This document shows positions 38,083 to 49,503 of a stretch of 64,000 bases of DNA, piece by piece. A program made the position numbers and the translations under genes. Numbering within the stretch: the stretch's first letter is position 1; each line of letters opens with the position of its first letter. The notes beneath the pieces are model-generated. The model worked only from the letters and a program-made list of their open reading frames with translations. It was not told the DNA's origin and ran no database searches. Source of the DNA: an uncultured Pelagimonas sp. (GTDB taxonomy: Bacteria; Pseudomonadota; Alphaproteobacteria; Rhodobacterales; Rhodobacteraceae); assembly GCF_947498515.1 (NCBI RefSeq), contig NZ_CANMKO010000004.1, positions 124,001 through 188,000 of the forward strand, read 5' to 3'.

Positions 38083-39030
38083 ATGAACACTAATCGCCGC
38101 ATTTTTCTGTCCGGTCTTGCAAGCGTAGTGACGCTAGCAACCACCAAAGCGAGCTGGGCCGAAGGCAAAGGGCTGATCGCTATCTTGACACCGAGCCATG
38201 ACAATCCGTTTTTCAAAGCAGAAGCCGTAGGCGCAGAAGCACGCGCCCAAGAGCTTGGCTATGAAACCATTGTTTTGGTCCATGACGATGATCCCAACAA
38301 GCAGTCCGAGCTGTTCGACACGGCAATTGCCCGAGGTGCAAAAGCAATAATCCTAGACAATGCCGGTGCCGACGCAACCGTCGCAGCAGTTCAACGTGCG
38401 AAAGATGCGGGGATTCCATCGTTCCTGATCGACCGTGAAATCAAAGAGGCAGGCATTGCCGTTAGCCAAATCGTATCGAACAACTATCAAGGTGCGCAGC
38501 TAGGTGCCGAAGAATTCGTCCGCATCATGGAAGAGACCGGAAACTACGTCGAATTGGTTGGCCGTGAAGCCGATACAAATGCCGGCATCCGCTCGTCTGG
38601 CTACCACGATATCATTGACCAGTACCCCGATATGGTCATGGTGGCACAGCAATCCGCCAATTGGTCTCAGACGGAAGCCTTTGAAAAGATGGAGTCAATC
38701 TTGCAAGCCAACCCTGATATCAAAGGGTTGATTTGTGGTAACGACACCATGGCGATGGGGGCTTGGGCCGCACTAGAAGCCGCCGGACGCAGCGATGTTC
38801 TGGTTGTGGGATTTGACGGCTCGAACGATGTCCGCGATAGCATTCTTGCCGGCGGGATCAAGGCAACAGTGTTACAGCCAGCATACCGGCAGGCCCAGAT
38901 CGCAGTTGAACAAGCTGACAAATATATCGAAACTGGATCAACCGGTTTGGAAGAAAAGCAGTTGATGGATTGCGTTTTGATCAATGCTGACAACGCTGCC
39001 GATTTGGAAACCTTCGCGCTTGGTGCCTAA
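38083..39030 (+). CDS. Periplasmic sugar-binding protein of an ABC importer (likely D-apiose)
   Basis: 315 residues, RbsB-like (periplasmic binding protein domain). A signal peptide opens [16 protein letters not shown]; its RRxFL motif suggests Tat export. Mature protein begins near residue 28 with [28 protein letters not shown], then [24 protein letters not shown] and [18 protein letters not shown], all typical of ribose-type binding proteins. GGGAGG is 7 bases before the ATG. It is the first gene of the importer and apiose operon; binding of apiose is inferred from the enzymes encoded downstream. Confidence 0.88.
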
Positions 39031-39050
39031 GCGTTAAAGTCCAGAGTTAT

Positions 39051-39075
39051 AGGGCGCGGCACCACGCTGCGCCCT
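39051..39075. other. Hairpin after the binding-protein gene
   Basis: AGGGCGC pairs with GCGCCCT around an 11-base loop, with no T-run. Such hairpins between binding-protein and transporter genes often protect the upstream mRNA, so the binding protein is made in excess. Confidence 0.6.
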
Positions 39076-39095
39076 GTGCAATCAACGGGGGTTAA

Positions 39096-46789: not shown

Positions 46790-46833
46790 TTGACAACTGG
46801 TATAATAAGGTACTAAGCATACCAACATGTCAA
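46790..46833. promoter_or_regulatory. Nested dyad between divergent apnO and oiaK, candidate GntR operator and promoter
   Basis: Two concentric inverted repeats: the outer TTGACA/TGTCAA and, inside it, TGGTAT/ATACCA with 15 bases between. TATAAT at 46800-46805 could be the -10 box of oiaK with TTGGAC at 46775 as -35 (19-base spacing); the outer TTGACA on the minus strand could be the -35 of apnO. The position and TGGTA/TACCA halves suit a FadR-type GntR dimer. Confidence 0.55.
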
Positions 46834-46876
46834 GCAACCAATGCCGTGGTTGATGCATCATCAAGAGGACACACAA

Positions 46877-48229
46877 TTGGATTCACGACCCGAAAGCCTA
46901 TCGCTTGCTTGGTATGGAGACGATTTCACCGGGGCTGCAGCCGTTCTGGAAGTTCTGACCTTTGCTGGTATTCCCGCGATGCTCTTTCTTGATGCTCCGA
47001 CACCGGAACAGCTCTCGCGCTTTCCGGAACTAAGGGCCTTCGGAATTGCCTCGACCGCGCGCGCGCACTCTCCTGATTGGATGGAGCGCAACCTCCCCCC
47101 TGCTTTTGAAGCCCTTTTGGCGTTGGAGCCGGAGATTCTTCACTATAAAGTTTGCTCAACCTTGGATTCTTCGCCGACAACAGGGTCCATCGGGCGCGCC
47201 ATCGAGATTGCCGCCAAAATCATGGCCCCTGAAATGGTCCCGGTCTTGGTCGCAGCGCCGCAACTGCGCAGATACCAAATCTTTGGCCACTTGTTTGCCG
47301 GTCACGGTGACAAGGTTTACCGCCTTGATCGCCATCCTGTCATGGCGCGCCACCCGGTCACGCCAATGCAGGAAGCTGACGTAGGCAAACACCTATCGGC
47401 ACAGTCTGATCGCCTGTCAGTGTCGGTGTGGCCCCAAGACAAAAATGCCGCCCGTAGCGAGGCATCGCAAGGTCAGATTTCTGTATGTACCCTCGATTGT
47501 ATGGACCCGCAGTCTGAGGCCGAGGCGGGCCAGTTCATATGGGAAAACCGTCGCAAAAATCGATTTGTCGTTGGGTCGCAAGGCATCGAATATGCGATCG
47601 TAAATCATTGGATTAAAACAAATCAACTACCCCCACCGCCCCCAAGGTCCGGCGTAGGGCGTGCCTCCGGCATGGTTTCAGTTTCGGGATCAGTTTCCCC
47701 CACAACGGCTGAGCAAATCGCTTGGTCTCGTGCAAATGGGTTTGCGCCTATTCACTTTGATGCGTCGCAAGCTTGCTTAGGTTCAGAGAGCTTAACACGC
47801 GAAATCGAACGAGCAGTTTACGATAGTCTTTCCGCCATAACCGACGGGTTAGACCCGCTGATTTACACCGCACATGGTCCCGATGATCCGAATGTTGCAC
47901 GGTTCCGACAGGCCGCCGCGAGGTCCGGGAAACCCATCACTGAGGTGAACCAATCTATTGGCAAGTCCTTAGGTACGGTGCTTGACCGGGTCCTAACCCA
48001 AAGCGGCATTCGCCGCGCCGTTGTGTCTGGCGGTGACACCTCTGGATATGCGGCCCAGCAACTGGGGATCTTTGCATTGACGGCGCTGGCCCCGACGATC
48101 CCCGGCGCATCACTTTGTCTGGCCCATGCCGATGGTCCGATGGATGGGCTCGAGCTGGCGCTAAAGGGCGGGCAAATGGGCAGTCCGGATTATTTTGGCT
48201 GGATTCGTGACGGAGGAGGCCCGAAATGA
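46877..48229 (+). CDS. oiaK: 3-oxo-isoapionate kinase, four-carbon acid sugar kinase family
   Basis: About 450 residues. N-terminal domain has LAWYGDDFTGAAAVLEVL (the family's start, GDDFTGA) and the C-terminal nucleotide-binding domain has GIRRAVVSGGDTSGYAAQQLG, SGGDTSG being its phosphate loop; TAHGPDD lies between. The four-carbon acid sugar kinases phosphorylate sugar acids; next to ApnO this is expected to phosphorylate 3-oxo-isoapionate at C4. The TTG at 46877 is chosen because AAGAGGA is 8 bases upstream; ATG codons at 46841 and 46853 are in frame but leave almost no leader. It overlaps the RuBisCO-like gene by four bases. Confidence 0.8.
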   Translation: MDSRPESLSLAWYGDDFTGAAAVLEVLTFAGIPAMLFLDAPTPEQLSRFPELRAFGIASTARAHSPDWMERNLPPAFEALLALEPEILHYKVCSTLDSSPTTGSIGRAIEIAAKIMAPEMVPVLVAAPQLRRYQIFGHLFAGHGDKVYRLDRHPVMARHPVTPMQEADVGKHLSAQSDRLSVSVWPQDKNAARSEASQGQISVCTLDCMDPQSEAEAGQFIWENRRKNRFVVGSQGIEYAIVNHWIKTNQLPPPPPRSGVGRASGMVSVSGSVSPTTAEQIAWSRANGFAPIHFDASQACLGSESLTREIERAVYDSLSAITDGLDPLIYTAHGPDDPNVARFRQAAARSGKPITEVNQSIGKSLGTVLDRVLTQSGIRRAVVSGGDTSGYAAQQLGIFALTALAPTIPGASLCLAHADGPMDGLELALKGGQMGSPDYFGWIRDGGGPK

Positions 48230-49503
48230 AACGCATCACTGCAACATATGACATCGAAACCCCGGTCGGATTGGCCAAAGCAGCCGCCGTTTTGGCCGGT
48301 GAACAATCCACTGGAACCTTTGTGCGGTTGGCGGCCGAAACTGATGCCTTGCGTGACCGTTCAGCGGCGCGGGTAGACCAAATCCTTATAACGGGTCGCT
48401 CGAACCAGCCCGCGCTGCCTTGCCGCAAAACTGGCGACACATATGAACGCGGGACCGTTACGATCAGCTGGCCAATTGGCAACATTGGCTTTTCCTTGCC
48501 AACGCTTTTATCGACCATAGCTGGAAACCTATTTGAATTGGCAGACCTGTCGGCCATTCGCTTGACGGACATCAATCTGCCAGCCTCTTTTGTGTCGAAA
48601 TTTCCCGGCCCTCAATATGGGGCAGCCGGAACGCGCAAATTGATGGGTGGCCAGGCTGGCCCGGTTATTGGGACGATCATCAAACCAAGCGTTGGATTGC
48701 GGCCTTCTGAAACGGCCAATCTGGTCAAATCACTGGTCCAAGCGGGTATTGATTTCATCAAAGACGATGAACTTCAGGCGAATGGACCAGATTGTCCCTT
48801 TGACGACCGGCTTGCAGCCGTCATGCAGGTTATCAATGATCACGCTGATAAAACCGGCAAGCAGGTTTTATATGCCGTGAATGTCACCGACGAAATCGAT
48901 CAAATGCGGCGCAACCTGGATTTGATGGCCGATCATGGCGCAACCTGCGCGATGGTTTGCATGCAGTCTGTTGGTATAACCGGGTTGCGTTCGGTGCGAA
49001 ATCACGGGACCGCGCTTATTCATGGCCACCGGGCCGGTTGGGGGCTTTTGTCTCGGTCACCGAACATCGGGATCAGCTTTGTGGTCATGCAAAAGCTTTG
49101 GCGTCTCGCTGGGGCGGATCATCTTCATGTAAATGGCCTCGGCAACAAATTTACTGAAAGCGATACAGTGGTTAGCCAATCCGCACGTTCGGTTCAATCT
49201 CCGGTTTCCGAGCATGGGGGACCTGATCACCTTGCCATGCCAGTCTATTCATCTGGGCAAACGATCTGGCAAATTGATCCGGCGCGGCAGGTGCTTGGCA
49301 ATGACGATTTCATCTTTTGTGCCGGCGGCGGAATTGTCAGCCACCCAGATGGGCCCGGCGCCGGAGTTTCGGCCCTTCGAGATGCTGCGCAGGCCGCATC
49401 GCAGGGTATTCCGCTTGAGAAATTTGTAAAACAGGGCAGCCTTTTAGACCGGGCGATGCAAGCTTTTCCCAAACCAACACTGTGCAACGATGACGAGACT
49501 TAG
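48226..49503 (+). CDS. oiaT/oiaX: RuBisCO-like protein acting on 3-oxo-isoapionate-4-phosphate (transcarboxylase/hydrolase or decarboxylase)
   Basis: 425 residues, RuBisCO large-subunit fold. The catalytic-site motifs are GTIIKPSVGLRP (as RuBisCO GxxxKPKLG), DFIKDDELQANGP with the carbamylated Lys and the Asp-Glu metal ligands, and HGHRAGWG with the His-Arg pair. The N-terminal domain starts MKRITATYDIETP. Two RuBisCO-like enzymes are known in the apionate pathway: OiaT, giving 3-phosphoglycerate and glycolate, and OiaX, giving L-erythrulose 1-phosphate, which then needs isomerases. No isomerase is encoded nearby, so OiaT is favoured by context. It is co-transcribed with the kinase. Confidence 0.82.
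   Translation: MKRITATYDIETPVGLAKAAAVLAGEQSTGTFVRLAAETDALRDRSAARVDQILITGRSNQPALPCRKTGDTYERGTVTISWPIGNIGFSLPTLLSTIAGNLFELADLSAIRLTDINLPASFVSKFPGPQYGAAGTRKLMGGQAGPVIGTIIKPSVGLRPSETANLVKSLVQAGIDFIKDDELQANGPDCPFDDRLAAVMQVINDHADKTGKQVLYAVNVTDEIDQMRRNLDLMADHGATCAMVCMQSVGITGLRSVRNHGTALIHGHRAGWGLLSRSPNIGISFVVMQKLWRLAGADHLHVNGLGNKFTESDTVVSQSARSVQSPVSEHGGPDHLAMPVYSSGQTIWQIDPARQVLGNDDFIFCAGGGIVSHPDGPGAGVSALRDAAQAASQGIPLEKFVKQGSLLDRAMQAFPKPTLCNDDET

What the first reader, a model, noticed from the sequence alone, without database searches (positions are those of the whole stretch)
38083..49503. Complete candidate D-apiose/D-apionate island with its own ABC importer
Gfo/Idh/MocA dehydrogenase, large lactonase, ApnO-like oxidoisomerase, four-carbon acid sugar kinase and RuBisCO-like protein lie together with a CUT2 importer, DUF2291 lipoprotein and GntR regulator. 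This is the gene set of the described apionate pathway, but in a marine-type roseobacter and with a split, divergent layout. Apiose is rare in nature but abundant in seagrass apiogalacturonan.
Basis: partly seen in the sequence, partly recalled or inferred. Interest (0 to 1): 0.8.

Follow-up and report, generated by a model that had tools for sequence, protein, structure and literature searches.

The report
Roseobacter D-apiose island, RuBisCO-like ending
A marine-type bacterium carries a complete set of genes for importing and eating the rare plant sugar apiose, a known pathway, but its last step probably uses a different RuBisCO-like enzyme from the decarboxylase that its best database match suggests.

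Summary
The binding protein is 81% identical to PDB 5ibq. The lactonase, kinase and RuBisCO-like protein (RLP) have apionate families as best NCBIfam hits. The dehydrogenase and oxidoisomerase each have one dominant PDB relative. The pathway is known, and another Rhodobacteraceae with such a cluster grows on D-apiose (PMC11747546, passages). So this is a new member.

What tools add is the last step. The RLP is probably not decarboxylase OiaX: it scores 391 against a cut-off of 700, while four of four OiaX-type RLPs tested score 755-785. The isomerase DerI, which OiaX's product should need, is in 6 of 6 OiaX-type genomes but 2 of 40 with window-type RLPs, like the family background. The window genome lacks it. 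I predict OiaT (transcarboxylase/hydrolase), giving 3-phosphoglycerate and glycolate. This is inferred; no characterised OiaT sequence was obtained.

A conserved operator-like motif is exact at only two sites in the genome, both here. No match to Pfam's Apiosidase family was found, so the seagrass link is unsupported.

The parts
37981..38006 (-). operator-like site upstream of the importer operon (CAACAGGTATGATGAG core at 37987-38002)
   Evidence: exact match to CAACNGGTATRATRAG, one of only two exact matches in the whole genome; 77 bases before the binding-protein start
38083..39030 (+). CUT2 sugar-binding protein, predicted D-apiose-binding
   Evidence: 228 of 283 aligned residues (81%) identical to PDB 5ibq; Pfam PF13407; signal-peptide-like N-terminus by eye
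39096..39746 (+). DUF2291 lipoprotein-like protein of the importer operon
   Evidence: PF10054, 169 bits; same place in relatives
39743..41284 (+). ABC transporter ATPase (two ABC domains)
   Evidence: PF00005, two stretches; sugar ABC ATPase models
41281..42345 (+). ABC transporter permease
   Evidence: PF02653; ribose permease-like
42355..43371 (+). ApsD-like D-apiose dehydrogenase
   Evidence: 477 bits to PDB 5uhw, next best 89; Gfo/Idh/MocA Pfam domains
43368..45101 (+). ApnL D-apionolactone lactonase
   Evidence: only NCBIfam hit is NF049900 ApnL, 671 bits, cut-off 750; no PDB relative
45107..45832 (-). GntR/FCD regulator, NanR subfamily; likely local regulator
   Evidence: NF003011 at 274-275 bits, cut-off 260; PF00392 + PF07729
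45918..46745 (-). ApnO-like D-apionate oxidoisomerase
   Evidence: 418 bits to PDB 5t57, next 259; PF16896; start refined
46790..46833 (.). imperfect inverted repeat TTGACA..TGTCAA with the operator-like core CAACTGGTATAATAAG (46794-46809), in the ApnO/OiaK divergent spacer
46877..48229 (+). OiaK-like 3-oxo-isoapionate kinase (open frame from 46841)
   Evidence: NF042436 475 bits, cut-off 700; start refined
48226..49503 (+). RuBisCO-like protein, predicted OiaT-type (3-oxo-isoapionate-4-phosphate transcarboxylase/hydrolase)
   Evidence: PF00016/PF02788; OiaX model 391 of 700 bits; separate clade from OiaX; DerI absent from genome

Best explanation
The region is a self-contained D-apiose catabolic island. 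Inferred course: the CUT2 importer brings in D-apiose; ApsD oxidises it to D-apionolactone; ApnL opens the lactone to D-apionate; ApnO oxidises and rearranges it to 3-oxo-isoapionate; OiaK phosphorylates that; and the RLP ends the pathway. I think the RLP is of the OiaT type, a metal-dependent transcarboxylase/hydrolase giving 3-phosphoglycerate and glycolate, not the OiaX decarboxylase giving L-erythrulose 1-phosphate. The NanR-type GntR protein probably represses both transcription units through two GGTAT-containing sites. Shown here by computation: gene identities, RLP clade, absence of DerI, the two sites. Inferred: every enzyme activity, the RLP product, and regulator binding.
For: Gene identities. 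RLP not OiaX: 391 of 700 bits, against 755-785 for four of four OiaX-type RLPs tested; five other window-side (A/B) RLPs tested score 379-451. OiaX clade separated by a branch of about 1.4 changes per site with 100% SH-aLRT. Partner isomerase: DerI model NF051858 matches 33 of 394 family genomes at E <= 1e-45, among them 6 of 6 with OiaX-type RLP, 2 of 40 with A/B-type RLP and 25 of the other 348; Fisher p = 3e-6 for OiaX against A/B, p = 1 for A/B against the rest. An adjacent RpiB-plus-TIM pair is in 6 of 6 OiaX genomes and 1 of the 45 others (G314; G316 has both, on different contigs). The window genome has one RpiB that is a ribose-5-phosphate isomerase B equivalog and scores only 108 of 240 on the DerI model, and one TIM. 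Literature passage: the RLP of Agrobacterium radiobacter K84 decarboxylates and that of Xanthobacter autotrophicus ATCC BAA-1158 transcarboxylates/hydrolyses 3-oxo-isoapionate-4-phosphate, citing Carter 2018 (PMC6302742, passages). In Xanthobacteraceae 16 RLPs were found in 15 of 149 genomes; none of the 15 fetched and placed falls in the OiaX clade, and the 6 with an ApnO gene nearby are all in the window's A/B clade. Active site: window type keeps Asn101 and His301 (149 of 150 non-OiaX rows keep both), OiaX type has Gly and Gln (9 of 9). The genome has glcDEF to use glycolate. Operator.
Against: No biochemically tested OiaT sequence was obtained, so membership in OiaT is indirect. The kinase, lactonase and RLP are all below the NCBIfam cut-offs; for kinase and lactonase this also holds in a cluster whose RLP passes as OiaX (Martelella), so those cut-offs look strict. 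Glycolate oxidase does not discriminate: a GlcD-like protein of at least 418 bits is in 49 of 51 RLP genomes, and one that lacks it (G338) has a window-side RLP. Absence of DerI would also fit a decarboxylase with some other downstream route. The window's clade A is a sister group of clade B, where the Xanthobacteraceae apionate RLPs fall, so function could differ between them. Structure prediction never ran, so the ligand pocket was not compared.
Confidence: 0.66

Rival explanations
1. Same D-apiose island, but the RLP is a diverged decarboxylase with OiaX activity, and L-erythrulose 1-phosphate is handled by an isomerase or aldolase not recognised here.
For: The best NCBIfam hit of the RLP is OiaX, and the LCG007 paper assigns a decarboxylase (EC 4.1.1.121) to its own cluster (passage).
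Against: Score far below cut-off while OiaX-type RLPs pass; different clade; Asn101/His301 against Gly/Gln; DerI missing from the genome and no more common in A/B genomes than in the family at large.
Confidence: 0.2
2. Same D-apiose island, but the window-type RLP does a third reaction on the phosphorylated acid, neither OiaX nor OiaT.
For: Clade A is distinct from the clade that holds Xanthobacteraceae apionate RLPs, and some clade A loci lack nearby ApsD/ApnL and have a TRAP importer or D-erythronate dehydrogenase.
Against: ApnO and OiaK accompany clade A and clade B RLPs alike, which points to the same substrate.
Confidence: 0.08
3. The cluster serves erythronate, threonate or another four-carbon acid, not apiose.
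For: The kinase is of the four-carbon acid sugar kinase superfamily; a D-erythronate dehydrogenase lies beside the RLP in one relative, L073, and homologues of it lie close to the RLP in others.
Against: Kinase 475 bits to OiaK against 121 and 38; ApnL has no other NCBIfam hit; binding protein 81% identical to 5ibq, whose bound apiose I recall but did not see in a call.
Confidence: 0.03

Closest known systems
D-apiose to D-apionate and RLP-dependent D-apionate pathways (Carter et al. 2018, Nat Chem Biol; cited in PMC6302742 and PMC13001218; paper itself not held)
   Same: ApsD, ApnL, ApnO, OiaK and an RLP with a CUT2 importer
   Different: No new reaction is shown; differences are gene order, host, and which RLP type closes the pathway
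Strain LCG007 D-apiose cluster (Rhodobacteraceae, PMC11747546, passages only)
   Same: Five catabolic enzymes of the same names; growth on D-apiose as sole carbon source was reported
Martelella mediterranea plasmid pMM593 cluster (L256)
   Same: Importer, DUF2291, ApsD-like, ApnL-like, NanR, ApnO-like and kinase genes
   Different: Its RLP is OiaX (782 bits, cut-off 700); the window has the other RLP type
Ahrensia kielensis DSM 5890 cluster (L140)
   Same: Same gene order and strands; RLP 73% identical
   Different: Nothing essential seen

Membership tests
D-apiose dehydrogenase/lactonase front end (ApsD, ApnL) with CUT2 importer | ApnL model match | tested here: inconclusive
   NF049900 671 bits, cut-off 750; sole NCBIfam hit. 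A Martelella cluster with a passing OiaX also falls short (624)
D-apiose dehydrogenase/lactonase front end (ApsD, ApnL) with CUT2 importer | closest solved relatives are apiose-pathway proteins | tested here: inconclusive
   5ibq and 5uhw dominate, but that these are apiose-pathway entries is recalled; call outputs name them only generically
OiaK 3-oxo-isoapionate kinase | OiaK model cut-off | tested here: not met
   475 of 700 bits; best family by a wide margin. Kinases beside OiaX- and A/B-type RLPs also fall short: 467, 464, 570. Works like an OiaK by context
OiaX decarboxylase | OiaX model cut-off | tested here: not met
   391 of 700 bits
OiaX decarboxylase | DerI (and adjacent TIM paralogue) in the genome to use L-erythrulose 1-phosphate | tested here: not met
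OiaX decarboxylase | Gly/Gln at positions 101/301 (signature found here, not from literature) | tested here: not met
   window has Asn/His
OiaT transcarboxylase/hydrolase | same clade as the characterised Xanthobacter RLP | tested here: inconclusive
   Only unnamed Xanthobacteraceae and named Ancylobacter relatives were available; the ApnO-linked ones lie in the window's A/B clade
OiaT transcarboxylase/hydrolase | products 3-phosphoglycerate and glycolate | not testable with these tools
   needs an enzyme assay
RuBisCO superfamily, metal-dependent active site | carbamylated lysine and acidic ligands (IKDDE), HxHR, loop-6 Lys | tested here: met
   K179-D-D-E182, H266/H268-R269, K308 conserved in 54 of 54 rows; the second Lys of KPK is Ser
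NanR subfamily of GntR/FCD regulators | NF003011 cut-off | tested here: met
   274-275 of 260 bits; the ligand need not be sialic acid

The most novel reading that the evidence does not exclude
The window-type RLP clade is a distinct RuBisCO-like enzyme that keeps nearly the whole RuBisCO active site and ends apiose breakdown by moving and hydrolysing the carboxyl carbon, or by a third reaction, with no loss of CO2; and in the sea the two RLP types replace one another behind the same apiose importer and front-end enzymes.
Probability: 0.3. Interest if true: 0.6.

Novelty: new member of a known kind. Interest (0 to 1): 0.4.

Why it matters
If right, automatic transfer of 'OiaX decarboxylase' to these bacteria gives the wrong carbon budget: OiaT keeps all five carbons (3-phosphoglycerate plus glycolate) where OiaX loses one as CO2. 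The two RLP types behind closely related apiose enzymes, differing at two active-site positions that align with RuBisCO, give a natural comparison of how a RuBisCO-like protein is switched between decarboxylation and a RuBisCO-like carboxylation-hydrolysis. The pathway itself, and its presence in marine Rhodobacteraceae, are not new.

Tried and rejected
Rejected: erythronate/threonate pathway (kinase and lactonase scores). Rejected: that the sub-threshold OiaK and ApnL scores argue against membership (a cluster with a passing OiaX shows the same). Tried without power: glycolate oxidase as a discriminator (best GlcD-like hit at least 418 bits in 49 of 51 genomes, 0 of 51 over the model cut-off). 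Tried: an RLP of Xanthobacter itself; none appeared among the 80 best of 570 confirmed named relatives, nor among the 25 listed of 366 plasmid records; unnamed Xanthobacteraceae were used instead. Tried: Rfam on 36000-62000, no match at gathering scores. The ApnO tree shows the OiaX-linked rows as one group (1 change), the OiaK tree 2 changes, the ApsD tree 4 (at least 3 forced by starred branches), so mixing of RLP types behind one front end rests mainly on ApsD (two long-branch rows were flagged there). At up to 2 mismatches the operator motif is no more common in the genome than its reversed control (11 against 11); only the exact matches stand out. 5ibq in one open paper is described only as a probable ribose-binding protein (PMC8112048, passages). 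PMC8914248 was searched for apiose terms, none found. One row (G173, an RLP fragment) was left off the trees but counted among the 40 A/B genomes by its 52% identity; several of those genomes are under 90% complete.
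Full report
1. Observation. The window (contig C4, 124001-188000, of a 4.6 Mb genome in 47 contigs) holds at 38083-49503 an importer operon (binding protein, DUF2291, ATPase, permease) running into a Gfo/Idh/MocA dehydrogenase and a 577-residue lactonase on the plus strand; then a GntR regulator and an oxidoisomerase on the minus strand; then a kinase and an RLP on the plus strand. Upstream lie polysaccharide genes and a GGDEF/EAL protein; downstream a second sugar-acid cluster begins.

2. Identity of the enzymes. The lactonase hits only ApnL in NCBIfam (671 bits, cut-off 750), the kinase OiaK (475, cut-off 700) and the RLP OiaX (391, cut-off 700). 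The binding protein has 500 bits to PDB 5ibq and 498 to 4ry0, next 212; 228 of 283 aligned residues (81%) are identical to 5ibq. The dehydrogenase has 477 bits to 5uhw, next 89; the oxidoisomerase 418 to 5t57, next 259. I recall 5ibq as a binding protein solved with apiose and 5uhw/5t57 as enzymes of the same study; the call outputs name them only generically, so that is recall.

3. Prior knowledge. The pathway was described by Carter et al. 2018, which is not held; I saw it only as cited. Passages of PMC11747546 report the five-enzyme cluster in Rhodobacteraceae strain LCG007 and growth on D-apiose. So a marine Rhodobacteraceae eating apiose is in print. Passages of PMC6302742 say that the RLP of Agrobacterium radiobacter K84 decarboxylates, and that of Xanthobacter autotrophicus ATCC BAA-1158 transcarboxylates/hydrolyses, the same phosphorylated acid. 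My searches of the library for apionate terms were made; I saw no paper on RLP typing in Rhodobacteraceae, but the library lacks most subscription papers and one search was swamped by unrelated words.

4. Three kinds of RLP. In 394 genomes of the family (one per genus but for one genus with two, by the tally), 51 have an RLP match at E <= 1e-70. Contexts were fetched for these and for G001. On the tree the rows fall into an OiaX clade (6 rows), a C clade (8 rows: kinase diverged or not found nearby, no ApnO nearby; a plasmid member lies beside a TRAP importer) and the A/B clade with the window (15 + 25 rows). Four of four OiaX-clade-type RLPs tested pass the OiaX cut-off (755-785), none of the others tested does (window 391; five A/B 379-451; two C 380-394).

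5. Partner test. Decarboxylation gives L-erythrulose 1-phosphate, which needs two isomerases, LerI and DerI (pathway knowledge, recalled). The DerI model finds 33 of 394 genomes: 6 of 6 with OiaX-type RLP, 2 of 40 with A/B-type, 25 of 348 others; Fisher p = 3e-6 for OiaX against A/B, and p = 1 for A/B against the rest. Adjacent RpiB-type and TIM-type genes: 6 of 6 against 1 of 45. The pair lies 8 kb from the RLP in G004 and elsewhere in the genome in the other five. Six OiaX-genome RpiB proteins score 224-240 on the DerI model (matched parts only); the window genome's single RpiB scores 108 and is a ribose-5-phosphate isomerase B equivalog. Around 87 further loci (80 named genome loci, 7 plasmid loci) my TIM and RpiB queries found one RpiB-like gene (L186) and no TIM.

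6. Active site. The RLP keeps the lysine and acidic ligands (K179-D-D-E182), H268-R269, loop-6 K308 and the GGG..HP segment, but has Ser for the second Lys of the RuBisCO KPK motif. Asn101 and His301, which align with Asn and His of Thermococcus RuBisCO 1geh (I recall them as spinach N123 and H327), are kept in 149 of 150 non-OiaX rows and are Gly and Gln in 9 of 9 OiaX-type rows (one other row has Gly/His). Keeping these fits an enzyme that must recarboxylate and hydrolyse; this is inference.

7. Xanthobacteraceae. As a stand-in for the characterised OiaT organism, 149 genomes of that family gave 16 RLPs in 15 genomes. Fifteen loci were placed: 8 in A/B, 7 in C, 0 in OiaX; ApnO was found near 6 of the 8 and none of the 7. 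Three named Ancylobacter loci and one other Xanthobacteraceae locus show RLP-kinase-ApnO-GntR-ApnL. This supports, but does not prove, that OiaT lies in A/B.

8. Swapping. Martelella pMM593 has the same importer, front-end and kinase genes with a passing OiaX. On the ApsD tree OiaX-linked rows are mixed with window-type rows (4 changes, at least 3 forced; for example G318 with G065 at 98), whereas ApnO shows 1 change and OiaK 2. So RLP type and front end have been re-paired at least in part.

9. Regulation. A motif CAACNGGTATRATRAG, defined from the window and relatives, is exact at 37987-38002 (minus) and 46794-46809 (plus), the only exact matches in the genome. In 134 relative loci (54 family, 80 named; a few genomes are in both sets, and six of the loci helped define the motif) it occurs 45 times in 39 loci, 44 of them within 350 bases upstream of a gene of the pathway; the reversed pattern and 200 permuted patterns per set gave 0. 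The regulator belongs to the NanR subfamily; E. coli NanR is recalled to bind GGTATA repeats, which resembles this site. A pair of opposed TTGACA boxes flanks the divergent site (46790-46833).

10. Verdict. The island is a real apiose island, and a new member of a known kind. The useful correction is the RLP type. glcDEF is present at contig C9 (GlcF 471 of 333, GlcE 261 of 284, GlcD 542 of 897 bits), so glycolate could be used, but GlcD-like proteins are near-universal in the sample. No Apiosidase family match was found in the genome. No structure was predicted.

Noticed in passing
window 49820-60858: A second sugar-acid cluster directly downstream: SMP-30 lactonase, aldehyde dehydrogenase, FAH hydrolase, IlvD/Edd-type dehydratase (993 bits to NF009560; only 535 of 882 to L-arabinonate dehydratase), a CUT2 importer with two permeases, and GntR. 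It looks like a Weimberg-type pentose or aldonate oxidation route; substrate unknown.
   Followed up: partly
L100-L107, L139, L244-L250: The C clade of RLPs has no ApnO found nearby, a diverged four-carbon kinase where one was found, and in one plasmid a TRAP importer: an apparently different RLP pathway. PDB 3nwr shares its Asn in the KPN and His in HVHG by eye.
   Followed up: partly
L137 9001-10233: A haloarchaeal plasmid (Natronococcus sp. CG52) carries an RLP 49% identical to the window's, beside a class II aldolase and an FGGY kinase.
   Followed up: no
L074, L157, L073, L076: Some clade A loci have no ApsD/ApnL found nearby and carry a TRAP importer (seen in L074; its homologues in L157) or an epimerase-family gene (D-erythronate dehydrogenase model passed in L073) close to the RLP; they may import apionate itself.
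   Followed up: partly
window 61499-63520: A 673-residue protein with RTX calcium-binding repeats and a Hint domain.
   Followed up: no
window 20293-23027: Two proteins of 420 and 491 residues on the minus strand with no Pfam match at E <= 1e-5, beside polysaccharide genes.
   Followed up: no
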